Below the pieces are notes generated by a model. That model saw only the letters and a program-made list of their open reading frames with translations. It was not told the origin of the DNA and did no database searches. DNA of 64,000 nt, taken from positions 1-64,000 of the IMG/VR virus record IMGVR_UViG_3300043446_003867. One strand, given 5' to 3'. Shown here one piece after another: positions 26,180 through 37,977 of the stretch. Origin of the DNA: a virus. The position numbers and the translations under genes are program-made. Within the stretch, counting starts at the first letter, position 1; every line of letters begins with the position of its first letter.

Positions 26180-26240
26180 GGGTTTTGGTTTACGTTCTGC
26201 ATGTGGGTTCGACGAGCCCCGAAGGAAAAGGCAGAGAACG
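26168..26240 (+). promoter_or_regulatory. Cassette promoter 1 with 5' leader hairpin
   Basis: -35 TGGCGC (26168), exact 17-bp GGTTTTGGG-type spacer, -10 TACGTT (26191). Leader hairpin GGGTTC-GAC-GAGCCC at 26205-26219, then a purine-rich GAAGGAAAAGG ribosome binding region. First of 17 copies. Confidence 0.75.
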
Positions 26241-26456
26241 ATGGCGAAGAAGAACGAAATCCGAGAAATGAACGGCTTCCAGGTCGGCGAGATCGTTCGC
26301 GGCCCCGTGGTCGGTGTCTTCAAGATCGTCGAATTCGCGGAGATGGCTGGGGAGATGCGGGCGATGCTGCGCCTCGCGGCGATCGTGAATGGCGAGGTGA
26401 TCGTGAGCCGCGCGAAGTCGGCGCTGCTGCCCTCGGAGCTTCGCAAGCTCGCGTGA
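26241..26456 (+). CDS. Small hypothetical protein, cassette gene 1
   Basis: A 71-aa protein. The central VGEIVRGPVVGVFKIVEF segment is beta-rich and the C-terminal end is helical and basic. It is the first gene driven by its own repeated promoter cassette. Not recognised. Confidence 0.65.
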   Translation: MAKKNEIREMNGFQVGEIVRGPVVGVFKIVEFAEMAGEMRAMLRLAAIVNGEVIVSRAKSALLPSELRKLA

Positions 26457-26492
26457 GGCGATAAAAAATCTCAAACTCGCGTCGATTTTTAC

Positions 26493-26560
26493 TGGTGCGG
26501 GTTTGGGTTTCGGTTTATGGTCTGCTCATCGGTCAATGACCGACAACGAGGAGAACGACA
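26493..26560 (+). promoter_or_regulatory. Cassette promoter 2 with 5' leader hairpin
   Basis: -35 TGGTGC (26493), 17-bp GGGTTTGGG-type spacer, -10 TATGGT (26516). Leader hairpin TCGGTC-AAT-GACCGA at 26529-26543, then GAGGAG. Confidence 0.78.
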
Positions 26561-26935
26561 ATGGGACGGATGATCAACTTTCAGGAATACCTCGCGATCA
26601 ACCACGTCGCTTCTGGTCCCGTGGTCGTGGACAACAACTACGGCGTACCGTGCCACAAGTGCGGCATCCGTATTAACCGCAGCGCGATCTGGCGGCACCT
26701 TCGCGCGGGCAAGCCCGGCGGGTGCGCGTATGTCTCGCCCGAGGAGGCGCGTGGTTACGTTGCCGGTGTCGCGTGTCAGCCCGCGGACGAGCCGGCGGGC
26801 GACCGGTCGGCGGTGCTCCAGTGGCGCAAGGGCTACAAGCGCGGGAAGGAAGATCGTATGCAGATGCTTCGACTCGGGAAGCGGGAAGCTCTCGTGAGCG
26901 TTTACGCGCGCTGCAAAGCGGCCCTTGGGTGCTGA
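26561..26935 (+). CDS. Cys-containing small protein, cassette gene 2
   Basis: A 124-aa protein with CHKCG near residue 31 and a later HLRAGKPGGC, consistent with a zinc-finger (CxxC...HxxxxxxxC). The C-terminal half is basic and helical. Possibly nucleic-acid binding; no family assigned. Confidence 0.65.
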   Translation: MGRMINFQEYLAINHVASGPVVVDNNYGVPCHKCGIRINRSAIWRHLRAGKPGGCAYVSPEEARGYVAGVACQPADEPAGDRSAVLQWRKGYKRGKEDRMQMLRLGKREALVSVYARCKAALGC

Positions 26936-26947
26936 TCGCGAAGAACT

Positions 26948-26980
26948 CCTCTCGGAAAAAAAACGAGAGGGGTTCGATTT
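26948..26980 (+). terminator. Terminator with A-tract loop before cassette 3
   Basis: CCTCTCG (26948) pairs with CGAGAGG (26964), with the A tract in the loop. The trailing T run (26978-26981) is short. Confidence 0.6.
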
Positions 26981-26984
26981 TGAC

Positions 26985-27058
26985 TAGCGTGGGTTCGGGT
27001 TTCGGTTTATGATGACTGTGTTGGGTCAATGAGCCCACGAAGAGAGAGGCAGAAGACG
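26985..27058 (+). promoter_or_regulatory. Cassette promoter 3 with 5' leader hairpin
   Basis: -35 TAGCGT (26985), 17-bp GGGTTCGGG-type spacer, -10 TATGAT (27008). Leader stem TGGG/CCCA at 27022-27037, then AGAGAGAGG. Confidence 0.75.
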
Positions 27059-27451
27059 ATGAACAACGAACTCAATTCCCGTGCGTTCAACGCGTGGTCA
27101 CTCCTCGCGGAGTTCCACTTCAGCGCGGAACAGGTCCGGATGATCGTGCAGGCGGTGGCGCACTTGTCGTTCGAACAGCAGGTGAAACTGGCGGTGGCGC
27201 TCTACGACATCGGGATGCGTGCGGAGTTCCTTCACGAAGAGGAGCGGTCGCTCGCGAAGCGGGTGGCGTATCTGGCGAGCAAGCAGGGGTCGATCGCGAA
27301 CGACATCGCGGCGATTCAGTCGATCGCGAAGTCGATCGAGGATCTTCGTGCGCGATACAAGGCGGCGAGCGAGAAGTTTCATCAAATGGCGAATTTCGCC
27401 GAGGTGAAACTTGCTCCCGAAATGTTCCCCGCGGACTTCGGTCGGATCTGA
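27059..27451 (+). CDS. Hypothetical helical protein, cassette gene 3
   Basis: A 130-aa protein, almost entirely helical (SAEQVRMIVQAVAHLSFEQQVKLA, then coiled-coil-like segments). ATG 27059 is chosen because it has the standard cassette spacing. Three very small genes follow in the same unit. Not recognised. Confidence 0.65.
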   Translation: MNNELNSRAFNAWSLLAEFHFSAEQVRMIVQAVAHLSFEQQVKLAVALYDIGMRAEFLHEEERSLAKRVAYLASKQGSIANDIAAIQSIAKSIEDLRARYKAASEKFHQMANFAEVKLAPEMFPADFGRI

Positions 27452-27462
27452 GCGGGGGCGCC

Positions 27463-27567
27463 ATGTTCATCGCGGATTGCTGCCACGGGTGGATCAATCT
27501 CGGCCTTTGCGCCCTCGCGGCGTACGCGGGCCATCGCTTTCAAATGTTCGTGAACCCGGAGAATTGA
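27463..27567 (+). CDS. Tiny membrane-like peptide (34 aa)
   Basis: A 34-aa frame from ATG 27463 with GCGGGGG upstream. The middle (WINLGLCALAAYAG) is hydrophobic enough to be one membrane segment. The next start follows the stop by one base, which supports translation, but a frame this short could arise by chance. Confidence 0.4.
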   Translation: MFIADCCHGWINLGLCALAAYAGHRFQMFVNPEN

Positions 27568-27568
27568 G

Positions 27569-27745
27569 ATGAGAACGACGATGCACAAGGACGGTTCGAT
27601 CACGTATTGGAGCGTCCACCGCCAGCAGTGGGTTCGCCGCTCGCGCGGTGTCGACTTCGCGGATCTCGTCGCGATGCCCGAAAAGCTGCGCCTGCGCGTG
27701 CAGCGTCATATCGCACGACACACCCTCAAGGAGTGCGCGCCGTGA
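27569..27745 (+). CDS. Small basic protein (58 aa)
   Basis: A 58-aa Arg-rich protein from ATG 27569 to TGA 27745. A second in-frame ATG lies at 27581. Its stop overlaps a GTG start, forming a coupled chain. Not recognised. Confidence 0.45.
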   Translation: MRTTMHKDGSITYWSVHRQQWVRRSRGVDFADLVAMPEKLRLRVQRHIARHTLKECAP

Positions 27746-27939
27746 GCCTTCGAATCGCGCTTTGGGTCGATCGTGTGAGCGATCCAACCGACCCGGTGTG
27801 GATCGTTTCGCTGGAGGACGACGATAGCAGCGAGACGCTGCGCGTCTGCCCGTTCAATGAGGCGGGCGAGCGTACGGCGCGCAAGGTCGCGAAGCAGGCG
27901 GCGACCCGTCGCGGGATCCCGCTTCAGGTGGAGTCGTGA
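27742..27939 (+). CDS. Small hypothetical protein
   Basis: A 65-aa alpha/beta protein from GTG 27742 (RIALWVDRVSDPTDPVWIVSLE). Overlaps both neighbours by 4 bp. Not recognised. Confidence 0.5.
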   Translation: MSLRIALWVDRVSDPTDPVWIVSLEDDDSSETLRVCPFNEAGERTARKVAKQAATRRGIPLQVES

Positions 27940-28226
27940 AGGCGTTCCGGCTCTCGCAGGCGGTCGTCGATCACATTGCCGAAGACTTCGATCCGGCTGA
28001 CGACGTGGTCGGCGACGAGGAGTACCTGCAACGTGCGCGGGTGCTTCGCGCGCTCATCGCGGGCGAAGCGGTGGAGCGGGCATCCGCGGTTCGCGCGCTC
28101 CACGAAGCGGCGAACGCGTGCGACGATCGGCTCGTCGAAGGGAAGCTCGACGGGTACGAGCGGCAGCACCAAGCGCGAATGCGCGATGCTCTCACTGCGG
28201 CGGCGTATCGGTACGCGGCGCGGTAA
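27936..28226 (+). CDS. Small hypothetical helical protein
   Basis: A 96-aa helical protein from GTG 27936, coupled to the previous stop. It ends one base before the minus-strand SGNH hydrolase, so transcription converges here. Not recognised. Confidence 0.55.
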   Translation: MKAFRLSQAVVDHIAEDFDPADDVVGDEEYLQRARVLRALIAGEAVERASAVRALHEAANACDDRLVEGKLDGYERQHQARMRDALTAAAYRYAAR

Positions 28227-28814
28227 TCACTCGACAACTCGGCGTTCCTGCATCCACGTCCACAACGATGCGCCCCAAAAGGCGTAGCCCTCGGGGGTCG
28301 CGTGGATGCCGTCATTTTGGCGCGCGATCACGATGCGCGTGGAGTCGAAGGCGATCGGCGACAGCATAACGGCGCGCTGGACGGCGTGCCGGACGGGATA
28401 GCGGACGGGAAGCGTCGGAGGGCTGATCCACACGAGCACGGCGTCGGCGTGGTTCGCGGCGGCTTGAAGTTCGCTGATCCTGGCGTCGATGTTTGCCGCG
28501 TCGCCGACAACTGCGTCGTTGGTTCCGAGGCTGACGAGCACGAGCGAAGGCTTGGTGCGCGCAAGGAGATTGCGCAAGACGGCGGGCCAGTGGACGACGC
28601 GCGAGCCGCGAACGGCGACCGTCGTCCACTCGTAACCGGCTCGCTCGGCGATGCGTTGAAGATGGGGACCAAAGCCTTCGGCGTGCGAGTCGCCGATCAA
28701 TAGGATGCGCTCACCTCGACGAACGGCGGCGGCGTGGCAGTCAAACTCAAGTTCCGCGGAAGTTTTGCGAGAGGTCGACGCGAGTAGGGAGAGGGCGAGC
28801 AGAAGCGAGCGCAT
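28227..28814 (-). CDS. Secreted SGNH/GDSL-family hydrolase
   Basis: A 195-aa esterase or acyl-hydrolase on the minus strand. From ATG at 28814 it has a signal peptide (RSLLLALSLLAS). Block I is LLIGDSHAEG with nucleophile Ser43, block III is SLGTND, and block V is DGIHATPEGY with the catalytic Asp-His pair, so the family's catalytic set is complete. Such enzymes remove acyl groups from surface polysaccharides or lipids. It is one of only two confident minus-strand genes, suggesting separate acquisition. GTG 28829 is an alternative start. Confidence 0.87.
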   Translation of the reverse strand: MRSLLLALSLLASTSRKTSAELEFDCHAAAVRRGERILLIGDSHAEGFGPHLQRIAERAGYEWTTVAVRGSRVVHWPAVLRNLLARTKPSLVLVSLGTNDAVVGDAANIDARISELQAAANHADAVLVWISPPTLPVRYPVRHAVQRAVMLSPIAFDSTRIVIARQNDGIHATPEGYAFWGASLWTWMQERRVVE

Positions 28815-28819
28815 CGCGC

Positions 28820-28825
28820 TACGCT
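28820..28825 (+). promoter_or_regulatory. TANNNT -10 element six bases before a start codon
   Basis: TACGCT ends 6 bases before ATG 28832 with no ribosome binding site between, as expected for a leaderless transcript. No good -35 is seen. Confidence 0.45.
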
Positions 28826-28831
28826 GCACGC

Positions 28832-29551
28832 ATGACCGTCGACGAGCAAGTCATCGACGGGGGGCCATGGACCTGCGACGATGCGGGCACCTGCAAGCGC
28901 TTACTTTTCCGTATGTATTGGCAGCCGGTGGACGAGGCCGGCAACGTGGTGGAAAACGAGTGGGAGCACTCACAGGCGCGCGCGCGACGGGAGGCGATCG
29001 CGAAGCCGAAGCAGACCGAGAAGAGGCCCGAAGTGAAGATCGAACAGGTTGAGGAAGCGCACGCGGCACCCGCACACGAAACGCGCGCGCAAGTTCCCGA
29101 CGCACCGGCGGCGGCGCCGGTAGCACAGATCGCCGTTCCATCCCCTGCAACGGCGGCGCACGAGGTTGCAGGGCTGATGCCCGCTGGAGGGGCGGCGAAC
29201 GGCATCACAGTCGTTCTCGCCGCGATCGCCGTGCTCGGTGGTGGGGCTGGGTGGAAGTTCTATTCGCAATGGGCGAAGCAGAAGCACGAGGAACGGATGG
29301 CCGAGATCGAGCGCGGCGCGCGCGTCGACGACGATGGCAAGAAGCGTTGCGAGGGGCACGCACAAGAAAGTCGCGTGGCAGTCGCGAACGTCGACGCGAA
29401 GGTCGAAGCGTTGACTCAGCGCATCGCATCGCTGGAGGCGCGTAACTCGGACACGGCGGCAATCTCGTTTGGAGAGAACGTCGAGGACCGACTCGTGAAG
29501 ATTGAAAAGGCGTTGAAGGCTGCAAAGCGACGTGCGACGACGGCGCGATGA
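28832..29551 (+). CDS. Membrane-anchored coiled-coil protein
   Basis: A 239-aa protein. The N-terminal domain is followed by an Ala/Pro/Glu-rich linker, then a single transmembrane segment near residues 128-146 (GITVVLAAIAVLGGGAGW). After it comes a charged coiled coil extending to the C-terminus (VEALTQRIASLEAR, VEDRLVKIEKALKAAKRR). It is coupled by ATGA to another membrane protein. A lysis-accessory or envelope role fits the neighbours, but no known holin or spanin is recognised. Confidence 0.65.
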   Translation: MTVDEQVIDGGPWTCDDAGTCKRLLFRMYWQPVDEAGNVVENEWEHSQARARREAIAKPKQTEKRPEVKIEQVEEAHAAPAHETRAQVPDAPAAAPVAQIAVPSPATAAHEVAGLMPAGGAANGITVVLAAIAVLGGGAGWKFYSQWAKQKHEERMAEIERGARVDDDGKKRCEGHAQESRVAVANVDAKVEALTQRIASLEARNSDTAAISFGENVEDRLVKIEKALKAAKRRATTAR

Positions 29552-30459
29552 CTCGCGAGCGCCTGCTGACGATTGCACTGGTGATCGGCGCCGTCGCTCT
29601 GGGCGGCGCCGTTTGGTTTCAGCGTCGAGAGATCCGCCGGCTCCGCGCCGACGTCGAGCAGAAGGACGGAGAGATTCGGCGTCTCGGTGCCGGCATCGTC
29701 GTCGTGCGCGAAGTGAAGGGCGATCCGGCGACGGTGCTCGTGGCCGCGGAGCGCGCTGGGTTCGATGTTGCCACGCTCAGGGCAGACTTGGATGATCACG
29801 GAATGGTGCTCAGGGGGGTCTTAAACGCGTCCGCGAGCACGCAAGGTGGCGTGACCCCACCACACGAAGGAAAGCCCCTCGGCGGGTCGGCTACGGGCTC
29901 GCAAACGAGCATCGAGGAACGCGCGGGTGACGGCGTCGTGCCGTGGGGCCGAGCGGTGTACGATCCTGCGCAGGCGAAACCGTGGACGGTGGAGCAGTAC
30001 CCGAGGACGTACTCCGCGGGCGTCGCGCTCGCGGAGCGGGAAGACGGATCGCAGTTCGCTTACGTGACGATGGGGATCGAGTCGCAGGGCTCGCGCGTGA
30101 AGCTGGAGCCCTCGGCTGTTGAGCTGACGACGACGCCGGAGCCCTCGCGCTGGCGATGGGGCGCGTGGCCGTTGCTGACGCTAGACGCCGGTTTACGGGC
30201 AGGTTCGTTCGAGTGGTTTCCGGGCGTGGCAGTCGCGTTCGCGACGCGAGGAACGCGCGCTGGAGCGCCGGAATGGACCTTCCTCGCGGCGGGGCTCGCG
30301 TACGGAATCGAAGGGCGCCGCGCGGCGTTGTCGTTCGCGCCGGTGAGTTACACGCTCCGCGATCTTCTCCCGGTACGAAGCACGAGCGTCGGCCCGGCAA
30401 TCTTCGTCGACGAACGCGCGGAACTCACGTACGCGGTCGGCTTGCGCGTGGTTTTCTGA
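29548..30459 (+). CDS. Membrane-anchored protein, possible spanin-like
   Basis: A 303-aa protein with an N-terminal membrane anchor (LLTIALVIGAVALGGAVWF), then a coiled coil (EIRRLRADVEQKDGEIRRL), as in Rz-type inner-membrane spanins. A low-complexity linker follows. The C-terminal half (about residues 150-303) is rich in alternating hydrophobic beta strands and ends in a terminal Phe, reminiscent of a small outer-membrane barrel. If correct, one polypeptide would reach both membranes; this is inference. The next cassette begins directly after it. Confidence 0.55.
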   Translation: MTRERLLTIALVIGAVALGGAVWFQRREIRRLRADVEQKDGEIRRLGAGIVVVREVKGDPATVLVAAERAGFDVATLRADLDDHGMVLRGVLNASASTQGGVTPPHEGKPLGGSATGSQTSIEERAGDGVVPWGRAVYDPAQAKPWTVEQYPRTYSAGVALAEREDGSQFAYVTMGIESQGSRVKLEPSAVELTTTPEPSRWRWGAWPLLTLDAGLRAGSFEWFPGVAVAFATRGTRAGAPEWTFLAAGLAYGIEGRRAALSFAPVSYTLRDLLPVRSTSVGPAIFVDERAELTYAVGLRVVF

Positions 30460-30508
30460 GAGGATTCGCGCGAGAAAAAAAAAAACGACACGGTGTGTCG
30501 ATTCTCAC

Positions 30509-30582
30509 TGGCGCGGTTTTGGGTTTTGGTTTACGGTGACTGTGTTGGGTCAATGAGCCCACAAGGAGAGAGGCAGAAGACA
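30509..30582 (+). promoter_or_regulatory. Cassette promoter 4 with 5' leader hairpin
   Basis: -35 TGGCGC (30509), 17-bp GGTTTTGGG-type spacer, -10 TACGGT (30532). Leader stem TGGG/CCCA at 30546-30561, then AAGGAGAGAGG. A short hairpin preceded by an A tract (30486-30500) lies upstream. Confidence 0.75.
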
Positions 30583-30876
30583 ATGGCGATGTTCAAAGTT
30601 CTCTACGCGAAGAAAATCGATCTTCCTCGTCGGGCGCCCGTCGTTTTTGACTCGTGGTTCGATACCATCGGCGACGTCGAGGCGAATTCCACCGAAGGCG
30701 TGTTCGAGTACATGAACACCGAAGGGCCTAGCAAGTTCAACGTGCGATCGATGATGGTCGGCGACGTCGTGATCGCTGACGATGGCGCGTGGCGTTGCGA
30801 GCCGGCTGGTTGGTGTCTGGTCGATATCCTGAGCACCGCCGAGCTGATTCCTCGGTTCGTAGGAAAAACCGCCTGA
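30583..30876 (+). CDS. Small hypothetical protein, cassette gene 4
   Basis: A 97-aa beta-rich protein from ATG 30583. The segment VVIADDGAWRCEPAGWCLV resembles small phage proteins with a Trp/Cys-containing beta hairpin, but no function is known. It is the sole gene of its unit. Confidence 0.65.
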   Translation: MAMFKVLYAKKIDLPRRAPVVFDSWFDTIGDVEANSTEGVFEYMNTEGPSKFNVRSMMVGDVVIADDGAWRCEPAGWCLVDILSTAELIPRFVGKTA

Positions 30877-30910
30877 TCGGCGCGTCGGGATTCTCAGAGA
30901 AAAAAAAACG

Positions 30911-30942
30911 AACCCGCGTCGATTTCGACTGGCGCGGGTTCG
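30911..30942 (+). terminator. Stem fused to cassette promoter 5
   Basis: AACCCGCG (30911) pairs with CGCGGGTT (30933). The 3' arm is also part of the promoter spacer of the next unit. Compare the co-varying copy at 32976-33005. Confidence 0.55.
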
Positions 30943-31000
30943 GGTTTCGGTTTATGGTCTGCATGTGGGTTCGATGAGCCCCAAGGAAAGGCAGAAGACG
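30930..31000 (+). promoter_or_regulatory. Cassette promoter 5 with 5' leader hairpin
   Basis: -35 TGGCGC (30930), 17-bp GGGTTCGGG-type spacer, -10 TATGGT (30953). Leader hairpin GGGTTC-GAT-GAGCCC at 30967-30981, then AAGGAAAGG. Confidence 0.8.
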
Positions 31001-31153
31001 ATGAAGATCAGCAAAGCAGAACTCGCCGTTGTCCGTAAGATCGCCGCCGCCATGAAGGCGAAAGACGCGGTGGCGGCTGAGAAGCTGCTCCGGTCGCTTC
31101 GCCCCGAGATCCTGCCGGAACTGGCGGCGGTGATCCGGGAAATGATGGCGTGA
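31001..31153 (+). CDS. Small helical protein (50 aa), cassette gene 5a
   Basis: A 50-aa protein from ATG 31001 at the cassette position. Fully helical and Ala/Lys-rich. First of two genes in this unit. Not recognised. Confidence 0.55.
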   Translation: MKISKAELAVVRKIAAAMKAKDAVAAEKLLRSLRPEILPELAAVIREMMA

Positions 31154-31178
31154 ATTGCTCAACGAAAGGGAGACGAAA

Positions 31179-31400
31179 ATGGCTCGTGATCTTGCAGTCG
31201 AGTTTGGTTCCTTCGCTGACGTGTGTGTGATCGTTCGCGCGTACAGCGATGCTGGGCGTCGCTTTCTGGCGCAGATGGCGGGTGTCGCGGCGGAGTACTA
31301 CGCGCCCGTCGAGTCGATCGAATTGCGCAAGAGCGCGGCGCAGGACGTGTGGAATCGCGCGGTCGATGCCGGCTTGGTGATCGATTGCGTCGCGCGCTGA
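31179..31400 (+). CDS. Small hypothetical protein, cassette gene 5b
   Basis: A 73-aa protein from ATG 31179 with an AAAGGGAG ribosome binding site. Helical. Second gene of the unit and followed by a strong terminator. Not recognised. Confidence 0.6.
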   Translation: MARDLAVEFGSFADVCVIVRAYSDAGRRFLAQMAGVAAEYYAPVESIELRKSAAQDVWNRAVDAGLVIDCVAR

Positions 31401-31410
31401 CGGCGCGGGT

Positions 31411-31445: not shown

Positions 31446-31448
31446 GAC

Positions 31449-31522
31449 TAGCGCGGGTTCGGGTTTCGGTTTATGGTAGCTGCGTTGGGTCAATGAGCCC
31501 ACGAAGAGAAAGGCAGACGACG
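31449..31522 (+). promoter_or_regulatory. Cassette promoter 6 with 5' leader hairpin
   Basis: -35 TAGCGC (31449), 17-bp GGGTTCGGG-type spacer, -10 TATGGT (31472). Leader stem TGGG/CCCA at 31486-31501, then AGAGAAAGG. Confidence 0.78.
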
Positions 31523-31705: not shown

Positions 31706-31716
31706 GCGGTGAAAAA

Positions 31717-31740: not shown

Positions 31741-31743
31741 GAC

Positions 31744-31817
31744 TGGCGCGGTTTTGGGTTTAGGGTTACGGTAGCTGTGTTGGGTCAATGAGCCCACGAA
31801 GAGAAAGGCAGACGACA
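31744..31817 (+). promoter_or_regulatory. Cassette promoter 7 with 5' leader hairpin
   Basis: -35 TGGCGC (31744), 17-bp spacer (GGTTTTGGG with one variant ending TAGGGT), -10 TACGGT (31767). Leader stem TGGG/CCCA at 31781-31796, then AGAGAAAGG. Confidence 0.78.
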
Positions 31818-32200: not shown

Positions 32201-32270
32201 TGGTTCGGTTTCGGGTTTGGGTTTATGGTCTGCTCATCGGTGAACGACGCCGACAACGAGGAGAAAGAAA
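32201..32270 (+). promoter_or_regulatory. Cassette promoter 8 with 5' leader hairpin
   Basis: -35 TGGTTC (32201), 17-bp GGTTTCGGG-type spacer, -10 TATGGT (32224). Leader hairpin TCGGTG...CGCCGA at 32237-32253, then GAGGAGAAAG. Confidence 0.78.
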
Positions 32271-32534: not shown

Positions 32535-32540
32535 TCGGGA

Positions 32541-32576
32541 AGCCCTCTCGAAAAAAAGCGAGGGGGCTCTTTTTTT
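32541..32576 (+). terminator. Intrinsic terminator with A-tract loop
   Basis: AGCCCTCTCG (32541) pairs with CGAGGGGGCT (32559) with one wobble, then a T tract. Confidence 0.88.
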
Positions 32577-32578
32577 AC

Positions 32579-32649
32579 TGGCGAGGGTTCGGGTTTCGGG
32601 TTACGTTCTGCTCATCGATCAAGGGATCGACAACGAGAAGGAGACGACA
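32579..32649 (+). promoter_or_regulatory. Cassette promoter 9 with 5' leader hairpin
   Basis: -35 TGGCGA (32579), 17-bp GGGTTCGGG-type spacer, -10 TACGTT (32602). Leader hairpin TCGATC-AAGG-GATCGA at 32615-32630 (altered on both arms relative to other copies), then GAAGGAG. Confidence 0.8.
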
Positions 32650-32943
32650 ATGAACGCGATGGTGACCATCCAACAGCTCTGCGGCGGCAACGGCAACCGG
32701 CTCGTGGCGATGATCGGCGCGCACTCGTTCTTGGCGGGGAAGAACGAACTCCACTTCCAATTCAAGGGATCCCGCGCGGCGAATCGGGTGAAGATCGAAC
32801 TCAACGCGTTCGATCTCTACGATGTTACTTTCTTCGCGGGCCGTGGCGTCAACGTGCGCGAGGTGGAGCGGATCTCGAATGTTCCCGCTGAGAATCTTCG
32901 GCGCGTGTTCGTCGGTTTCACTGGACTCGACGTTTCGCTCTGA
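32650..32943 (+). CDS. Conserved small phage protein, cassette gene 9
   Basis: A 97-aa protein from ATG 32650. FQFKGSRAANRVKIELNAFDLYDVTF is a beta-rich core seen in small proteins of several phages and plasmids, function unknown. The frame is open far upstream, but that part covers a terminator and promoter and is not coding. Confidence 0.7.
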   Translation: MNAMVTIQQLCGGNGNRLVAMIGAHSFLAGKNELHFQFKGSRAANRVKIELNAFDLYDVTFFAGRGVNVREVERISNVPAENLRRVFVGFTGLDVSL

Positions 32944-32975
32944 TCCGAGGGGATCGGGGGTGGAAAAAAAAAACG

Positions 32976-33005
32976 AACCCACGTCGATTTCGACTGGCGT
33001 GGGTT
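32976..33005 (+). terminator. Stem fused to cassette promoter 10
   Basis: AACCCACG (32976) pairs with CGTGGGTT (32998). Both arms differ from the copy at 30911-30942 in a compensating way. The 3' arm lies in the promoter. Confidence 0.55.
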
Positions 33006-33066
33006 CGGGTTTCGGTTTATGGTCTGCTCATCGGTCAACGGGCCGACAACGAAAAGGCAGAAGACA
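32995..33066 (+). promoter_or_regulatory. Cassette promoter 10 with 5' leader hairpin
   Basis: -35 TGGCGT (32995), 17-bp GGGTTCGGG-type spacer, -10 TATGGT (33018). Leader hairpin TCGGTC-AACG-GGCCGA at 33031-33046, then AAAAGG. Confidence 0.8.
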
Positions 33067-33258
33067 ATGAAGATCGAACAGATTCCCGCGGAGATGAAGA
33101 AGGCGATCGCGAAGGACATGGCGGCGATTCGTGAGGCGTTCGAACTGGCGGAGGCGAGCTACGACGCGGAGCTGATGGCTCGCGCGGTGCGCGCGTACGG
33201 TCGGCTGTGCGACATGTGCGCGGAGTTCGGTCTGCCCTGCCCCGCTGTCATTTGCTGA
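33067..33258 (+). CDS. Small helical protein (63 aa), cassette gene 10a
   Basis: A 63-aa helical protein from ATG 33067, ending in a short Cys-containing tail. First of two genes in its unit. Not recognised. Confidence 0.6.
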   Translation: MKIEQIPAEMKKAIAKDMAAIREAFELAEASYDAELMARAVRAYGRLCDMCAEFGLPCPAVIC

Positions 33259-33270
33259 AGGAGAACTGAC

Positions 33271-33462
33271 ATGAGACTGCCAAACGTCATCGCACTTTCG
33301 ACTGTTGCAGATCTGCTGGACGCGTCTCGCTCGCGCCTCTCTTTCGAGGCGGTCAACGAGCTGGAGTGTCTTCCCGAGGCGTGGACTGTTCGCAAGGCGT
33401 GGTCCTCGTTGTCGCGCGATACGCGTGCAGCGATCCGCGCGTCGCAGGTAGTCGCGGGCTGA
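33271..33462 (+). CDS. Small hypothetical protein, cassette gene 10b
   Basis: A 63-aa protein from ATG 33271 with AAGGAGA upstream. Helical. Followed by a strong terminator. Not recognised. Confidence 0.6.
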   Translation: MRLPNVIALSTVADLLDASRSRLSFEAVNELECLPEAWTVRKAWSSLSRDTRAAIRASQVVAG

Positions 33463-33470
33463 TGCTGGAA

Positions 33471-33504
33471 GCCCTCTCGAAAAAACGAGGGGGCTCTTTT
33501 TTTT
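33471..33504 (+). terminator. Intrinsic terminator with A-tract loop
   Basis: GCCCTCTCG (33471) pairs with CGAGGGGGC (33486) with one wobble, followed by eight T bases. Confidence 0.9.
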
Positions 33505-33506
33505 AC

Positions 33507-33577
33507 TGGCGTGGTTTTGGGTTTCGGGTTACGTTCTGCATGTGGGTTCGATGAGCCCCAAGGAAAGGCAGAGAACG
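33507..33577 (+). promoter_or_regulatory. Cassette promoter 11 with 5' leader hairpin
   Basis: -35 TGGCGT (33507), 17-bp GGTTTTGGG-type spacer, -10 TACGTT (33530). Leader hairpin GGGTTC-GAT-GAGCCC at 33544-33558, then AAGGAAAGG. Confidence 0.8.
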
Positions 33578-33955
33578 ATGAACGCTCACGAGATCAAGAT
33601 CGCCGAGGAAGCTTACGAGGGTGCGGGCGTGGAGGCGGCGCTGGTTGTGGCGCGCGGTGCGCTGCGTAGCGCGCGCGTCGCGGGTAAAGCGGCGAAGTCG
33701 GCGGCGGAACACGAGGTCGCGGCGCTGGCGTACAAGCGCGCGGTCGAAGCGATCGAAGCGGCGCGCGCGGCGATGTGGAGGGCGCTTTACGGGTGGTGTG
33801 TCGCGGTCGACGAATTGGAGCGCGCGGACGCGAACGATCGCGCGCGGCGGAGCCCCTACGCGGCGCTTGAGGCTGGCTTGGAGGCGGGGCTGAAGGAAGC
33901 GAACGAAGCGAACGGGATGCACGCGCTGGCGTACGTGCGCGCGATGCGTGCGTGA
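33578..33955 (+). CDS. Ala-rich helical protein, paralogue A
   Basis: A 125-aa, Ala- and Glu-rich helical protein from ATG 33578. It aligns along its length with the product of the next cassette (34071): AYEGAGVE/AYRAANVE, ALAYKRAVEAI/ALAYDEAAVAI and SPYAALEAGLE/NPYEKIEAVLE. The two are tandem paralogues, each with its own promoter. Probably a coiled-coil protein; function unknown. Confidence 0.7.
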   Translation: MNAHEIKIAEEAYEGAGVEAALVVARGALRSARVAGKAAKSAAEHEVAALAYKRAVEAIEAARAAMWRALYGWCVAVDELERADANDRARRSPYAALEAGLEAGLKEANEANGMHALAYVRAMRA

Positions 33956-33960
33956 TCGCG

Positions 33961-33999
33961 GATCCTCCTCTCTCGAAAACGCGAGGGGGGGATCGTTTT
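33961..33999 (+). terminator. Intrinsic terminator
   Basis: GATCCTCC (33961) with a CTCTCG extension pairs with CGAGGGGGGGATC ending at 33994, followed by GTTTTC. Confidence 0.78.
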
Positions 34000-34003
34000 C
34001 TAC

Positions 34004-34070
34004 TGGTTCGGTTACAGGTTTTGGGTTATGCTCATCGCGGTGGGTCGATGAACCCGAAAATGGAAAGGAA
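34004..34070 (+). promoter_or_regulatory. Cassette promoter 12 with 5' leader hairpin
   Basis: -35 TGGTTC (34004), 17-bp spacer, the most divergent of the set (contains ACAGG), -10 TATGCT (34027). Leader stem GGGT/ACCC at 34042-34055, then GGAAAGGAA. Confidence 0.7.
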
Positions 34071-34475
34071 ATGGCTATGAAAGACGCAATCGCGATCCGG
34101 ATTGAACAGCGTGAGGCGGAGCTTGCCGCGTCGGCGTATCGCGCGGCGAACGTTGAGGAGATGCTTCGTGTTTCGCGCGAGAAGCTGCTCGAAGCGCGTC
34201 GCCTTGGAGACGTCGCAGATGGCGAGGAGAACTACGAAGCGTATGGTGCGGCGGCGCTCGCATACGACGAGGCGGCAGTGGCTATCGGGAAGGCGCGCCG
34301 TGCGCTCGGTGGGGCATACGTGAGCTGGAGCGATGCAGTCGCGAAGTGGGAACGCCCGGACGCGTACGACTTCGCGCCGCGGAATCCTTACGAGAAGATC
34401 GAAGCGGTACTTGAGGAGGAGCGGGAAGAAGTGAACGCAGGGCGGCGACTCTACTCGCTTCTGGCGATGTTCTGA
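34071..34475 (+). CDS. Ala-rich helical protein, paralogue B
   Basis: A 134-aa helical protein, the tandem paralogue of the 33578 product. ATG 34071 has AAAGGA directly upstream; an in-frame ATG at 34077 is an alternative. Function unknown. Confidence 0.7.
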   Translation: MAMKDAIAIRIEQREAELAASAYRAANVEEMLRVSREKLLEARRLGDVADGEENYEAYGAAALAYDEAAVAIGKARRALGGAYVSWSDAVAKWERPDAYDFAPRNPYEKIEAVLEEEREEVNAGRRLYSLLAMF

Positions 34476-34487
34476 GAATCCTGGCCG

Positions 34488-34531
34488 GATCCTCTCATCG
34501 AAAAAAAAAAGCGATGAGGGGATCTTTTTTT
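34488..34531 (+). terminator. Intrinsic terminator with A-tract loop
   Basis: GATCCTCTCATCG (34488) pairs with CGATGAGGGGATC (34512), nearly perfect over 13 bp, with ten A bases in the loop and a seven-T tail. Confidence 0.92.
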
Positions 34532-34533
34532 GC

Positions 34534-34605
34534 TGGTTCGGTTTCGGGTTTGGGTTTATGGTCTGCTCATCGGTCAACGGGCCGACAACGGGAAGGCAGA
34601 AGAAG
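34534..34605 (+). promoter_or_regulatory. Cassette promoter 13 with 5' leader hairpin
   Basis: -35 TGGTTC (34534), 17-bp GGTTTCGGG-type spacer, -10 TATGGT (34557). Leader hairpin TCGGTC-AACG-GGCCGA at 34570-34585, then GGAAGG. Confidence 0.8.
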
Positions 34606-34806
34606 ATGAGCGCATTCGGGAAGGGTCAGATCGTCGTCGCGAAGTCGGCAGCGCAGGGGCTCGTGAAGGGTCGGAAGTACGTGGTGCTGGCTGTCCTGAA
34701 CACCGTCGGCGGCTGGTATCTCTACGAGGTGCACGGGGTGGAGGGATCGAACAACTCGGTCCTCCGGATCGCCAACGCGCAGTTCGTCTTTTCTGAGGTG
34801 AAGTGA
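34606..34806 (+). CDS. Small beta-rich protein (66 aa), cassette gene 13
   Basis: A 66-aa protein from ATG 34606 with an SH3-like strand pattern (GQIVVAKSAAQGLVKGRKYVVLAV). Similar small beta barrels are common in phages. Function unknown. Confidence 0.6.
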   Translation: MSAFGKGQIVVAKSAAQGLVKGRKYVVLAVLNTVGGWYLYEVHGVEGSNNSVLRIANAQFVFSEVK

Positions 34807-34814
34807 TCGGGCGG

Positions 34815-34850
34815 GAACGCCTCGCGAGTGGATCGCGGGGCGTTCTTTTT
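34815..34850 (+). terminator. Intrinsic terminator
   Basis: GAACGCCTCGCGA (34815) pairs with TCGCGGGGCGTTC (34833), followed by five T bases. Confidence 0.9.
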
Positions 34851-34853
34851 CGC

Positions 34854-34922
34854 TTGATAGGTTTCGGGTTTCGGGTTATGGTTTCCGTATCGGACAAGGT
34901 TCCGACAACGAGGAGATGAGCG
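34854..34922 (+). promoter_or_regulatory. Cassette promoter 14 with 5' leader hairpin
   Basis: -35 TTGATA (34854), the closest to the sigma70 consensus, 17-bp GGTTTCGGG-type spacer, -10 TATGGT (34877). Leader hairpin TCGGA...TCCGA at 34890-34905, then GAGGAG. Confidence 0.82.
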
Positions 34923-35033
34923 ATGAACAACGAGGAAGTGCTTGAGGCGAACGCGGGCGAGATCGAGGCGGACGAGCGGCGCGCGGAGGAGATCGACGAC
35001 GCGGAGTGTTACGGCGCGGAGCATTGGGGCTGA
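34923..35033 (+). CDS. Very acidic mini-protein (36 aa), cassette gene 14
   Basis: A 36-aa frame from ATG 34923 to TGA 35031, rich in Glu and Asp. A strong dedicated promoter, leader hairpin and ribosome binding site argue that it is expressed despite its size. It could bind a basic host protein or mimic nucleic acid; this is speculation. Confidence 0.5.
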   Translation: MNNEEVLEANAGEIEADERRAEEIDDAECYGAEHWG

Positions 35034-35040
35034 ACGGCGC

Positions 35041-35069
35041 AAAAAAGCCCGCGGAGGGTATCCGCGGGC
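35041..35069 (-). terminator. Terminator of the minus-strand endolysin gene
   Basis: GCCCGCGGA (35047) pairs with TCCGCGGGC (35061). On the minus strand the hairpin is followed by six T bases (A tract 35041-35046). Confidence 0.88.
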
Positions 35070-35090
35070 GTCGTTGCATTGTGGGTCAGG

Positions 35091-35552
35091 TCAAACGGGC
35101 TTCATCCACAGGTCGCCTTCGGCTTTGCGGCGCTTGGTGAGGCCGGGGAGGGCTTGGAGCTTTCCGCCGACGGTGGCCTTGTCCCACATGGCGAGACCGG
35201 CGGGAACCAGCTCCGGCTTACCGGCGCGGAGGTTTTTCATCGCGGTGGAGTCATTGAGCGGGCCGGAGCCGACGTTGTAAGTCCAGCTGACGAGGGCATC
35301 GAACTGGTTCTGATTGAGCGGCGGAAGGTTCGCGCGATGGATCGCCTTCTCGAAGCGAACGAGGTCTTTCGCGAGCAGTTCGCTGGCCTGGGCTTCGGTC
35401 AGCTCGGTAAACGTCTCGCCCTTCTCGACAACGTGGCCGTAGCCGATGGTCGGCTTACCGGCGGGGCAGAGGTAGACTTTCGGGACGAAGCCTTCGCAGT
35501 CTTTGATCAGCTTGAGGCCAGCGGCGCCGGTTTTGAGATGTTCGTTGCTCAT
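35091..35552 (-). CDS. GH24 endolysin (T4-type lysozyme)
   Basis: A 153-aa muramidase on the minus strand that hydrolyses peptidoglycan at lysis. The catalytic triad fits the GH24 pattern E-8x-(D/C)-5x-T: Glu20 (CEGF), Cys29 and Thr35 (KPTIGYGH). NQFDALVSWTYNVG near residue 85 is the conserved GH24 helix. There is no signal peptide, so a holin is expected but not identified with confidence. A GGAGG site precedes the ATG. Its isolated minus orientation within a plus-strand region suggests separate acquisition. Confidence 0.93.
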   Translation of the reverse strand: MSNEHLKTGAAGLKLIKDCEGFVPKVYLCPAGKPTIGYGHVVEKGETFTELTEAQASELLAKDLVRFEKAIHRANLPPLNQNQFDALVSWTYNVGSGPLNDSTAMKNLRAGKPELVPAGLAMWDKATVGGKLQALPGLTKRRKAEGDLWMKPV

Positions 35553-35763
35553 GGTCGAATTTCCTCCGGGAAAAGCCAGGGTAACGAAAAAAAGTGATCA
35601 GGCGAGACAAAAACGGACGCGGAGCGCGTCATGGGGGAAGTCGTATCCCGAAGGGAACGGATGGGGGTGAGGAGCCGGGAGGGAAAGGACGGCAGGAAGC
35701 GTCGCCCAGTTGGGTACTGGGGAGGCAGAAAAGGGCTTGATGATAACTAGCCGTTAATACCGA
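35553..35763. other. Divergent intergenic region
   Basis: About 210 bp between the minus-strand endolysin and the plus-strand zinc-ribbon gene, expected to hold divergent promoters. An AT-richer stretch with TTGATG and TAATAC lies at about 35736-35760. No convincing promoter spacing, cassette motif or coding frame is seen. Confidence 0.35.
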
Positions 35764-36180
35764 GTGGCGCGCGAGGCAGGGACCGTGGAGAGAGCGAAGA
35801 CGGGAAAGAAACGACGGGTGACGCGGACTCGACGGCAGTTGAGTGTGGGGGAGCGGTTCGGCGCGTTGGTTGTGGAGACGGTACGCCCGACGACGTTTCG
35901 ATGTGACTGCGGGAAGGTCGTCGAGAAGCGGATGCCGTATGCGGTCTACACGAGCAAGCATCCTAGCTGCGGGTGTAAGCGAGTCGCGTACAAGAGCGAG
36001 AAGCGAACGAACTCGCCGAACTACGAGCTAGTCGGCTTGGCGAATGACGCAGACAAGGTCACGTACATGCGCTGGCGGGTGAGGTGTAGGAAGTGCGGAG
36101 CGGAACTCACTGTCTCGAATGGTCAGCTCTTGGTCAGTAGGAAGAACCGCTACGGGTGTCGAATCTGCCTCATGGGGTAG
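35764..36180 (+). CDS. Zinc-ribbon DNA-binding-like protein
   Basis: A 138-aa protein. VGERFGALVVET then FRCDCGKVV and SCGCKR form the Cys pattern typical of the zinc ribbon found in phage HNH and AP2-type DNA-binding proteins (FGxLxV...CxCG...SCGC). A second Cys group (CRKCG...CRIC) follows. No HNH nuclease motif is visible. Start could be GTG 35764 or GTG 35785. It lies just before the XRE regulator. Confidence 0.6.
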   Translation: MAREAGTVERAKTGKKRRVTRTRRQLSVGERFGALVVETVRPTTFRCDCGKVVEKRMPYAVYTSKHPSCGCKRVAYKSEKRTNSPNYELVGLANDADKVTYMRWRVRCRKCGAELTVSNGQLLVSRKNRYGCRICLMG

Positions 36181-36198
36181 AAAGTCGAGTTCTAACCG

Positions 36199-36528
36199 AT
36201 GACGTTGGGAAGATTGCTGCGGGGAATCAGGGAAGAGAGAGGGTGGACGCTGAGGCATGTCGCGAAACGCGCGGGATTGTCGCCGACGATCGTGTCGAGA
36301 GTGGAGACGGACCAGGATAGGATCGCGCCCGATACGCTCGAATCACTCCTGGTGACGATCGAAGCGAACGAGGAGCAGACCACGCGGGCGTTCTTTCTCG
36401 CAGGTAGGTTCCCGGACTCCGTGCTGGAACGCGCGCTGGCGTCAGAGGAGAACTTCGCGAGCGTCATCCGGTTCGTTCGTAGTCTCCCGATCCCGAACCC
36501 TTCCCGCTATCCGGCTCGATCTCCCTGA
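36199..36528 (+). CDS. XRE-family helix-turn-helix regulator
   Basis: A 109-aa protein with a Cro/CI-type HTH at residues about 4-60 (LGRLLRGIREERGWTLRHVAKRAGLSPTIVSRVE). The short C-terminal region could mediate oligomerisation. It may be a lysogeny repressor or Cro-like protein. A gene-poor region, repeated promoters and a serine recombinase follow, supporting an immunity or regulatory locus. Possible operator targets include the conserved cassette spacers. Confidence 0.8.
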   Translation: MTLGRLLRGIREERGWTLRHVAKRAGLSPTIVSRVETDQDRIAPDTLESLLVTIEANEEQTTRAFFLAGRFPDSVLERALASEENFASVIRFVRSLPIPNPSRYPARSP

Positions 36529-37167
36529 GCGTGTACCCGTATGCGGCGGTCTATCGTTCTCCGCGAGACGTTCGAGAGAGATGGTCTGACCCCCGTTCGC
36601 GGTACCCTCTGAGCGCCCCGGTCGTCGTATCGATGAACTCACTCGTACCCCATCGCTCACGACCCATTTTCAACCCCGTTCCACCCTCACGGTAGATGAT
36701 TCGTACCGTCGAGTTTTCCAGCGAAATAATCGCAACGGATTGGCCTACGCTGGTCGCTTCGCGCGTCTCCTCAGCGGTCAGAAGGCCGATTGCCGGGCCG
36801 TGACCGGCCCTCCCCGAGCCTTTCGAGAGCCACCCTAGGGGTCGATGACCCCCGAGGCATCGACGCGTTAAAACGCCGTTTAGGAGGAAGTTGCTCCGAG
36901 GGGGATCGGTACGGTGTGAACCGAAACGGTCGTTTCGGGTCACGGAGGGGCGACTCGGGTGCTCGGAATTGGCCGACGTTACCCTTTACGTGGGGGCATG
37001 CCCTGGCTCGATCTTGCGGTCGTTTCCTCGCGGCTGACCGCGGCTGCGGGCCGCTGGGCGGCTCGCCGAGGCCGCTGGCACGCGAGGGGGGTGCAGGGGA
37101 AGTGACGGGGGGCGTGCAGGACAAGGGTACCCCAAACTCGTCGTGACAAATTTTTAGGTTAGGCGAC
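36529..37167. other. Gene-poor, hairpin-rich region
   Basis: About 640 bp with no confident plus-strand gene. It contains GGGGTC-GAT-GACCCC at 36838-36852, which resembles the cassette leader hairpins, a GGCCG/CGGCC inverted repeat near 36795-36812, and an AGGAGGAAG site near 36881. Base composition looks less like coding DNA than its surroundings. Candidate regulatory, attachment-site or origin region; nothing proves which. Confidence 0.4.
36551..36943 (-). CDS. Possible minus-strand gene, uncertain
   Basis: A 130-aa open frame. The C-terminal 70 residues (SVAIISLENSTVRIIYREGG, then WGTSEFIDTTTGALRGYRER) look protein-like with alternating beta strands, whereas the first 50 residues look random, so the true start may lie inside. 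No family recognised. It may be a relic or an immunity-region gene read against the others. Confidence 0.3.
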   Translation of the reverse strand: MTRNDRFGSHRTDPPRSNFLLNGVLTRRCLGGHRPLGWLSKGSGRAGHGPAIGLLTAEETREATSVGQSVAIISLENSTVRIIYREGGTGLKMGRERWGTSEFIDTTTGALRGYRERGSDHLSRTSRGER

Positions 37168-37237
37168 TTGAAGGGATTCGGGTTTTGGGTTACGCACAAA
37201 GGAGTGGCCGAAGGTCGGTCGACGGAGGTGGAGAGGA
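37168..37237 (+). promoter_or_regulatory. Cassette promoter 15 (degenerate) with leader hairpin
   Basis: -35 TTGAAG (37168), 17-bp GATTCGGG-type spacer, -10 TACGCA (37191). Leader hairpin GGCCG-AAGGT-CGGTC at 37206-37220, then GGAGG. Confidence 0.68.
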
Positions 37238-37333
37238 ATGAGCGCGAAGGTTGTCGGTGAGTGCGTCATGGGTGGAGTGGAGGTGTGTGATGCGAGTGTT
37301 TTTGACTCCGAGGGCGTTGGTTGGGGTTGGTGA
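37238..37333 (+). CDS. Possible leader peptide (31 aa)
   Basis: A 31-aa frame from ATG 37238 with a good GGAGGTGGAGAGG site, at the normal cassette distance. It overlaps the 37290 gene in another frame, so it could be a leader peptide that tunes translation of that gene, or a relic. Confidence 0.35.
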   Translation: MSAKVVGECVMGGVEVCDASVFDSEGVGWGW

Positions 37334-37628
37334 GTGGGAGCGGGTGGGGGAAGCGATATTGTTCGGGTGTGAGGAGTATTTGATCGGGGGTGTGTCGTTC
37401 GTGGTGTGGAGCGAGGACGAGGGGTCGCGGGTATTGGGGGCGGTGTATGAGATCGACGCGGAGGGGGTTGAGGGGATTGATCGGCGGATGGTGGATCAGT
37501 CGAGGGAGGAGCGGACGGTGTTGATGGGAGGGGTGGCGGAATTCGCGGAGGTGTATGTGTTGCGGAATCGGGCGTTGTTGGCGGGATCGTGGGACGTGGA
37601 AAAGATGTCGATGAGCGGTCCGGGATGA
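37290..37628 (+). CDS. Hypothetical protein with atypical codon use
   Basis: A 112-aa acidic protein from ATG 37290 with GGAGG upstream. The gene is unusually rich in G and T (many GTG, TTG and GGG codons) compared with neighbours, suggesting different ancestry. Beta-rich N-terminal half. Not recognised. Confidence 0.55.
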   Translation: MRVFLTPRALVGVGEWERVGEAILFGCEEYLIGGVSFVVWSEDEGSRVLGAVYEIDAEGVEGIDRRMVDQSREERTVLMGGVAEFAEVYVLRNRALLAGSWDVEKMSMSGPG

Positions 37629-37638
37629 CGAATTCTAC

Positions 37639-37709
37639 TTGATTGGGTTCGGGTTTCGGGATATGGTCTGCTTGTGGGTTCAAGGAGCCCCGAAGAAGGA
37701 GACGGGATC
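37639..37709 (+). promoter_or_regulatory. Cassette promoter 16 with 5' leader hairpin
   Basis: -35 TTGATT (37639), 17-bp GGGTTCGGG-type spacer, -10 TATGGT (37662). Leader hairpin GGGTTC-AAG-GAGCCC at 37676-37690, then GAAGGAG. The loop differs from other copies while the stem is kept. Confidence 0.8.
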
Positions 37710-37901
37710 ATGGGAAAGCGAATCAAGATTGACGGTGTGGTTTGTGAGGTTGTGAACGCGTATTCGAGCGGGCCGGGAGCGCCGGCGTTCGAGTACGACC
37801 TACGCGATGGGGGGTATGTGTATTGCGTGGGGCCGGAGTGGAAGTTGCAGATGAGGGGTCAGTTCGCGCGGGTGGTGAACGTCGAGATCATCGCGGAGTG
37901 A
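37710..37901 (+). CDS. Small hypothetical protein (63 aa), cassette gene 16
   Basis: A 63-aa beta-rich protein from ATG 37710. Sole gene of its unit. Not recognised. Confidence 0.58.
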   Translation: MGKRIKIDGVVCEVVNAYSSGPGAPAFEYDLRDGGYVYCVGPEWKLQMRGQFARVVNVEIIAE

Positions 37902-37908
37902 TTTTCAC

Positions 37909-37977
37909 TTGCGTGGTTTTGGGTTTCGGTTTATGGTTCCTGTATCGGACAACGATCCGACAACGAGGAGGTGAGTC
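37909..37977 (+). promoter_or_regulatory. Cassette promoter 17 with 5' leader hairpin
   Basis: -35 TTGCGT (37909), 17-bp GGTTTTGGG-type spacer, -10 TATGGT (37932). Leader hairpin TCGGA...TCCGA at 37945-37960, then GAGGAGG. Confidence 0.8.

What the first reader, a model, noticed from the sequence alone, without database searches (positions are those of the whole stretch)
26205..37960. Leader hairpin conserved by base pairing rather than by sequence
Stems include GGGTTC/GAGCCC, TCGGTC/GACCGA, TCGATC/GATCGA, TCGGTG/CGCCGA, TCGGA/TCCGA and GGCCG/CGGTC, with changes on both arms that keep pairing. The hairpin starts only a few bases after the predicted transcription start, so it would form near the 5' end of each mRNA. 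I infer an RNA function, such as protection from 5'-end-dependent decay or a site for a phage RNA-binding regulator.
Basis: partly seen in the sequence, partly recalled or inferred. Interest (0 to 1): 0.82.

Follow-up and report, generated by a model that had tools for sequence, protein, structure and literature searches.

The report
5' mRNA hairpins on phage genes
In an uncultivated bacterial virus, 17 small gene units each place a short RNA hairpin at the predicted start of the message, and it has been kept by matching base changes rather than by sequence, which points to a generic structure at the message's 5' end, most likely one that protects it from decay.

Summary
All 17 promoters of the 26-38 kb region of this 89-kb myovirus record are followed by a 5-6 bp hairpin whose stem starts 7-9 nt after the -10 hexamer, i.e. 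at about +1 to +3. Shuffled leaders reach this 4.3 times on average (maximum 9 of 17). All five pairs covary: 100% of cells pair versus 61% for shuffled partners, 0/500. Relatives with 67-73% identical terminases carry the same hairpin in the same register behind other promoters, with other stems and loops (10 distinct leaders in G002 and G007-G010; one probable case in G013). The cassette proteins have no homologue in the relatives, so a leader format is conserved, not a sequence or a gene. The hairpin goes with promoters (17/17), not with ribosome sites (22/93 other genes; gene 31179 has the same RBS motif and no hairpin). Most likely it is a 5'-terminal stem-loop that shields each mRNA from 5'-end-dependent decay, like ompA or T7 gene 10. 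That function is inferred, not shown. Within the window the loop is also conserved (C-R-A-N-G), so a site for an RNA-binding regulator stays open. New variant of a known kind.

The parts
26205..26219 (+). leader hairpin 1: GGGTT-CGACG-AGCCC, before gene 26241
26529..26543 (+). leader hairpin 2: TCGGT-CAATG-ACCGA, before gene 26561
27022..27037 (+). leader hairpin 3: TGGGT-CAATGA-GCCCA, before gene 27059
30546..30561 (+). leader hairpin 4: TGGGT-CAATGA-GCCCA, before gene 30583
30967..30981 (+). leader hairpin 5: GGGTT-CGATG-AGCCC, before gene 31001
31486..31501 (+). leader hairpin 6: TGGGT-CAATGA-GCCCA, before gene 31523
   Evidence: an overlapping 5-bp alternative scored equal
31781..31796 (+). 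leader hairpin 7: TGGGT-CAATGA-GCCCA, before gene 31818 (LPD29 domain)
32237..32253 (+). leader hairpin 8: TCGGTG-AACGA-CGCCGA, before gene 32271
32615..32630 (+). leader hairpin 9: TCGAT-CAAGGG-ATCGA, before gene 32650
33031..33046 (+). leader hairpin 10: TCGGT-CAACGG-GCCGA, before gene 33067
33544..33558 (+). leader hairpin 11: GGGTT-CGATG-AGCCC, before gene 33578
34041..34056 (+). leader hairpin 12: TGGGT-CGATGA-ACCCG, before gene 34077
34570..34585 (+). leader hairpin 13: TCGGT-CAACGG-GCCGA, before gene 34606
34890..34905 (+). leader hairpin 14: TCGGA-CAAGGT-TCCGA, before gene 34923
37206..37220 (+). leader hairpin 15 (least certain): GGCCG-AAGGT-CGGTC, before a short ORF at 37238
   Evidence: promoter one base out of register
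37676..37690 (+). leader hairpin 16: GGGTT-CAAGG-AGCCC, before gene 37710
37945..37960 (+). leader hairpin 17: TCGGA-CAACGA-TCCGA, before gene 37978
26168..26196 (+). promoter 1: TGGCGC-17-TACGTT (spacer GGTTTTGGGTTTTGGTT)
26493..26521 (+). promoter 2: TGGTGC-17-TATGGT
26985..27013 (+). promoter 3: TAGCGT-17-TATGAT
30509..30537 (+). promoter 4: TGGCGC-17-TACGGT
30930..30958 (+). promoter 5: TGGCGC-17-TATGGT
31449..31477 (+). promoter 6: TAGCGC-17-TATGGT
31744..31772 (+). promoter 7: TGGCGC-17-TACGGT
32201..32229 (+). promoter 8: TGGTTC-17-TATGGT
32579..32607 (+). promoter 9: TGGCGA-17-TACGTT
32995..33023 (+). promoter 10: TGGCGT-17-TATGGT
33507..33535 (+). promoter 11: TGGCGT-17-TACGTT
34004..34032 (+). 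promoter 12: TGGTTC-17-TATGCT
34534..34562 (+). promoter 13: TGGTTC-17-TATGGT
34854..34882 (+). promoter 14: TTGATA-17-TATGGT
37168..37196 (+). promoter 15 (weak): TTGAAG-17-TACGCA
   Evidence: read one base shifted
37639..37667 (+). promoter 16: TTGATT-17-TATGGT
37909..37937 (+). promoter 17: TTGCGT-17-TATGGT
32541..32568 (+). terminator-like hairpin plus T-run closing the preceding cassette (example; others at 33470-33495, 33966-33991, 34813-34847)
   Evidence: 18 in the region versus 11.5 in shuffles

Best explanation
Each unit of the 26-38 kb region is a small transcription unit: a sigma-70-like promoter (17-nt spacer), a 5'-terminal stem-loop, a purine-rich ribosome site, one or a few orphan small genes and, in most, a terminator. 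The stem-loop is an RNA element selected for its presence and position at the very 5' end (stem begins at about +1 to +3), not for its sequence. By leaving 0-2 unpaired 5' nucleotides it most likely blocks the steps of mRNA decay that start at the 5' end (pyrophosphate removal, 5'-monophosphate-stimulated endonuclease or 5' exonuclease attack). It would thereby stabilise and boost each mRNA, as the ompA and T7 gene 10 5' stem-loops do. Shown here by computation: existence, position relative to the predicted start, covariation, conservation of format in relatives, link to promoters rather than ribosome sites. Inferred: the actual transcription start, folding in vivo, effect on decay.
For: 17/17 promoter-defined leaders have the hairpin in one register. 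Covariation in the window and over 16 distinct arm pairs with relatives. Relatives with different promoter sequences keep the hairpin at the same distance from the -10: G007-G010 (TTGCGC-18-CATAGT type) and G002 (TTG...-17-TATACT type). Loops differ in relatives (TCGGA, GAGAC, CTCCGA, CCAGA, CAGCGA, ACAAA, GACGCT, TCAGT, GAGTTT, ACAAC), so no specific reader is needed there. No cassette protein has a homologue in the relatives, while flanking genes are syntenic. Hairpin follows promoters (17/17), not ribosome sites (22/93 other genes; gene 31179 has CAACGAAAGG without hairpin). In the fixed 5-bp stems all 13 non-Watson-Crick cells are G.T on the mRNA strand and none is A.C (the search admitted G.T only). 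Predicted accessibility of the ribosome site does not depend on the hairpin (0.628 intact, 0.620 broken), which argues against a simple translation switch. Known precedent: a 5' hairpin impedes RppH and stabilises bla mRNA; BsRppH needs at least 2 unpaired 5' nucleotides (PMC3997798); the T7 gene 10 5' stem-loop raised expression 1.5-3-fold and raised mRNA (PMC6146998).
Against: No transcription start has been mapped and the host is unknown, so its decay enzymes are too. The hairpins are short and only moderately stable. In the window the loop is conserved as C-R-A-N-G, which a pure end-blocker would not need. The sibling record G001 (93-99% identical in many structural proteins) shows no such leaders in the part held, so they are not essential to the phage core.
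Confidence: 0.55

Rival explanations
1. The hairpins are the shared target of a phage- or host-encoded RNA-binding regulator that controls the whole set of small genes after transcription; the stem presents a C-R-A-N-G loop, and a second C-R-A-N-G follows the 3' arm.
For: In the window alignment two loop columns (A, G) are invariant and the C nearly so, while stems vary; the loop and the bases just after the stem have almost the same consensus, 10-11 nt apart. T4 DNA polymerase and the RNA phage coat proteins read hairpins in this way (PMC3014915; own knowledge for coat proteins).
Against: Loops of the relatives do not share the motif. The second motif is part of a ribosome-site module that also occurs without hairpin (gene 31179). 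No RNA-binding domain was found in the cassette proteins scanned. Shared descent of the copies could explain the loop.
Confidence: 0.22
2. A co-transcriptional role: the nascent 5' hairpin acts on RNA polymerase just after promoter escape (pausing, or antitermination in cis like the put RNAs of phage HK022).
For: Fixed distance from the -10 box whatever the promoter; terminators lie between cassettes.
Against: One 15-17-nt hairpin is far smaller than put RNA (two stem-loops; own knowledge); each cassette has its own promoter, so read-through is not needed.
Confidence: 0.1
3. A DNA-level element: a palindromic operator just downstream of the promoter, or a DNA hairpin promoter as used by the N4 virion polymerase.
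For: More distant relatives carry genome-wide palindromes of fixed sequence near promoters (G006 29, G005 22, G011 17 copies).
Against: A protein reading DNA needs conserved half-sites, but both arms change together. Ordinary sigma-70-like boxes stand upstream at fixed spacing. The largest ORFs of the record are tail-fibre-like, not N4-type polymerase.
Confidence: 0.05
4. Chance or a trivial by-product: copies of one cassette spread by duplication and kept their pairing by accident.
For: Several copies are identical (27022, 30546, 31486, 31781) and clearly recent duplicates.
Against: Distinct copies differ by paired changes on both arms; arm shuffles and slides destroy pairing; independent relatives repeat the format.
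Confidence: 0.03

Closest known systems
T7 gene 10 leader 5' stem-loop (phage; used in expression vectors)
   Same: Hairpin at the 5' end of a phage mRNA, upstream of the Shine-Dalgarno; raises mRNA level and expression (PMC6146998).
   Different: In T7 it follows a phage-polymerase promoter (own knowledge); here sigma-70-like promoters, at least 17 units in one array, with freely varying stems.
ompA / papA / aprE 5' stem-loops that stabilise bacterial mRNA
   Same: Terminal stem with few unpaired 5' bases; blocks 5'-end-dependent decay (PMC3997798 and the papers it cites).
   Different: Single cellular genes there; here a uniform leader format over many unrelated phage genes. Stabilisation not measured here.
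SAS and ESAS repeats of cluster K mycobacteriophages
   Same: Repeated elements just upstream of many small non-structural phage genes; 11-19 copies of SAS per genome; about half carry inverted repeats (PMC3203893).
   Different: SAS is a fixed 13-bp sequence at the ribosome site; the 17-bp IRs have a consensus per genome. Here the arms have no consensus and the position is tied to the promoter.
T4 gene 43 and gene 32 translational operators
   Same: Leader RNA structures kept between related phages (PMC3014915).
   Different: Autogenous sites in single mRNAs with loop bases conserved between phages; here many genes, and loops not conserved between genomes.

Membership tests
5'-terminal mRNA-stabilising stem-loop (ompA / T7 gene 10 class) | stem-loop at the extreme 5' end with few unpaired 5' nucleotides | tested here: met
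   stem starts 7-9 nt after the -10 in 17/17 window leaders and close to that in the relatives' leaders, 0-2 unpaired nt from the predicted start; the start itself is predicted only
5'-terminal mRNA-stabilising stem-loop (ompA / T7 gene 10 class) | pairing, not sequence, is what matters | tested here: met
   covariation at all 5 pairs
5'-terminal mRNA-stabilising stem-loop (ompA / T7 gene 10 class) | removal shortens mRNA half-life | not testable with these tools
   needs a reporter experiment
RNA-binding-protein operator hairpin | conserved loop or bulge bases shared by all targets of the protein | tested here: inconclusive
   C-R-A-N-G conserved in the window, not in the relatives
Cluster K SAS/ESAS | GGGATAGGAGCCC-like asymmetric 13-mer at the ribosome site | tested here: not met
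   no such fixed element in the aligned leaders; the arms vary
intrinsic terminator or attenuator | G+C-rich hairpin followed by a T-run | tested here: not met
   leader hairpins are followed by purine-rich ribosome sites (71-88% purine) and are not in the terminator list
N4-type DNA-hairpin promoter | phage encodes the giant virion RNA polymerase; hairpin sequence conserved at promoter | tested here: not met
   largest ORFs are tail-fibre-like; stems not conserved
any described Rfam RNA family | reaches the family's gathering score | tested here: not met
   no match in the window; a 16-nt hairpin would often be too short to score

The most novel reading that the evidence does not exclude
The 17 leaders form a post-transcriptional regulon: a phage or host protein recognises a covarying 5' stem with a C-R-A-N-G pseudo-triloop (optional 3' bulge, reminiscent of the iron-responsive element loop by own knowledge), perhaps together with the C-R-A-N-G just after the stem, and switches the whole set of small genes at once; the recognition code has changed between related phages.
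Probability: 0.18. Interest if true: 0.75.

Novelty: new variant of a known kind. Interest (0 to 1): 0.52.

Why it matters
Single 5' stem-loops that stabilise mRNA are known, but here a virus clade appears to use one as a standard part: 17 transcription units in one genome, and the same format with other sequences, promoters and genes in relatives. That is comparative evidence that a bare 5'-terminal hairpin is under selection in phages. It gives a ready natural library of stems and loops for testing how 5' structure sets mRNA life, and it suggests a simple way to flag accessory gene cassettes in uncultivated phages.

Tried and rejected
Rfam search: nothing. GenBank phages: no DNA match; the terminase finds only distant relatives, 22-32% identical. 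The window's promoter motif and the two relatives' promoter motifs searched over viral contigs gave no new phages, only contigs already held or unrelated single hits. The ribosome-site motif CAACGAAAGGCAGAA gave 53 stretches; only those from the G007 contig carry promoter and hairpin. Prophage search in genomes gave only two metagenome-assembled contigs, so the host stays unknown. Folding energy against shuffled leaders is not significant (mean z -0.7): the evidence is position and covariation, not stability. Hairpin as guard of ribosome-site accessibility: no predicted effect. N4-type promoter: no polymerase. A promoter scan of G013 gave one convincing extra leader (GCGGCG-CAAGGA-CGCCGC, but 13 nt after the -10) and none in G014, G001, G011, G012. 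MAFFT could not align hairpins with different loop lengths, so loops were replaced by a constant spacer for the pair counts, i.e. the alignment is fitted to the structure.
Full report
What the window is. The window is bases 1-64000 of an 89,081-base virus record. PHROGs matches make it a contractile-tailed phage: DnaB-like helicase 2645-4141, DNA polymerase 8812-11316, terminase 39490-41130, portal 45248-47167, tail sheath 59030-61534. The finding lies in a block of small genes between the replication genes and the terminase. No close relative is in GenBank phages and the host is unknown.

The observation. Each unit of the block has the same layout: promoter, hairpin, ribosome site, small gene, and in most a terminator-like hairpin with a T-run that abuts the next promoter. 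Aligning the promoters shows a 17-nt spacer between TGG/TTG/TAG-type -35 boxes and TAYGNT -10 boxes in 16 of 17 (the 17th is one base shifted), with a conserved T- and G-rich spacer.

Is it more than chance? Leaders were taken by promoter alone. 17 of 17 have a hairpin of at least 5 bp in the next 36 nt; shuffled leaders 4.28 on average, never more than 9. The stem starts 7-9 nt after the -10 box, i.e. +1 to +3 if transcription starts 7 nt after the -10. Other genes of the phage have a hairpin at the same distance from their start codon in 22 of 93 cases.

Covariation. On the 8 distinct arm pairs of the window all five pairs change on both sides; 100% of cells pair, 61% after shuffling, 0 of 500 shuffles. 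With relatives, 16 distinct arm pairs: 100% versus 49.5%, covariation score 1.28 versus 0.24, 0 of 500; sliding the partner by one column drops pairing below 50%. Clear double changes inside one sub-family that shares its flanks: G-C to A-T (26529 versus 32615), T-A to A-T (26529 versus 34890), C-G to G-C in the innermost pair (26529 versus 32237). The arms were chosen because they pair and the copies are related, so the shuffle counts are not probabilities; the promoter-anchored test and the independent relatives are the stronger support.

Relatives. A terminase search found records G001 (74%), G007-G010 (70-73%) and G002 (67%); a portal search added G013. G002 has five leaders and G007-G010 five distinct ones, behind different promoters (TTG...-17-TATACT with GGCCCTAGCTTGGNC in the spacer; TTGCGC-18-CATAGT), all with a hairpin in about the same register and all with other stems and loops. 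G013 has one probable leader. More distant relatives (38-51%) have instead fixed palindromes spread over the genome or, in G012, a fixed GGCGCTGAGCC hairpin in leaders. None of the cassette proteins in 26-38 kb has a homologue in the 12 relatives compared, while replication and virion genes on both sides do. So a leader format is conserved, attached to changing genes.

RNA or DNA? Both arms change together, which a DNA-reading protein would not allow. All 13 imperfect cells in the 5-bp stems are G.T on the mRNA strand and none is A.C; as the search admitted only G.T this is weak support. The hairpin goes with the promoter and not with the ribosome site: gene 31179, which has no promoter of its own, keeps the ribosome-site motif CAACGAAAGG without a hairpin.

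How it probably works. A stem that leaves 0-2 unpaired 5' bases is the known form of a 5'-terminal stabiliser. A 5' hairpin hinders RppH and stabilises bla mRNA, and the Bacillus enzyme needs at least two unpaired 5' bases (PMC3997798). The T7 gene 10 stem-loop raised reporter expression 1.5-3-fold and raised mRNA abundance (PMC6146998). For short transcripts made in bursts during infection, such a cap-like hairpin is a cheap way to gain half-life in any host; that the genes are early is my inference from their layout. Breaking the stem in silico does not change the predicted openness of the ribosome site, so a cis translation switch is unlikely. Not shown: real transcription starts, folding in cells, decay rates.

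What does not fit. In the window the loop is conserved (C nearly always, A and G always in the alignment), and almost the same consensus recurs just after the stem. A pure end-blocker would not need that. Either the copies share recent descent, or in this genome a protein reads the loop. The relatives' loops do not share it. This is the main open point and the most novel reading.

Verdict. Observation confirmed; RNA-level selection on a 5'-terminal hairpin well supported; decay protection the best mechanism at about 0.55; regulator site the main rival. Known kind (5' stem-loop stabiliser), new in its systematic, sequence-free use across an array of phage cassettes.

Noticed in passing
window 26147-26176, 26470-26507, 30909-30942, 32974-33007: Terminator-like stems of 13-15 bp overlap the -35 box and spacer of the next promoter, so the end of one cassette and the start of the next share bases.
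   Followed up: partly
promoter spacers at window 26168-37937; records G002 (L015), G007 (L076), G010 (L082): The promoter spacer is strongly conserved within this genome (GGNTTNGGGTTTNGG) and a near-palindrome sits in the same place in relatives (GGCCCTAGCTTGGNC in G002; GGCCCTTGCATGGCC in one leader each of G007 and G010), as if a regulator bound between the -35 and -10 boxes.
   Followed up: partly
records G006 (L030-L034), G005 (L026-L029), G011 (L089-L093): Distant relatives carry 29, 22 and 17 exact copies of a genome-specific palindrome (CCGCAACACGTGTTGCGG, TTGAGGTCGACCTCAA, GATGATCGATCATC) spread over the whole genome, stoperator- or parS-like.
   Followed up: no
G001 (L035, L036) versus window 38273-52405: G001 is 93-99% identical to this phage in many virion proteins but has an unrelated module upstream of a terminase that is only 74% identical: a recent module swap next to the serine recombinase gene.
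   Followed up: partly
leaders between window 26205 and 37977: The loop consensus C-R-A-N-G is repeated directly after the 3' arm at a spacing of 10-11 nt in nearly all leaders; unexplained.
   Followed up: partly
window 52547-53509: RelA/SpoT domain gene inside the virion gene block, a possible phage (p)ppGpp enzyme or toxin-like protein (Pfam 2.3e-16).
   Followed up: no
window 38989-39468: Pyrimidine dimer DNA glycosylase family (T4 denV-like) gene directly before the terminase.
   Followed up: no
window 35091-35552 (-), 36199-36528 (+): A lysozyme gene on the minus strand and a Cro/C1-type HTH gene interrupt the cassette array.
   Followed up: no
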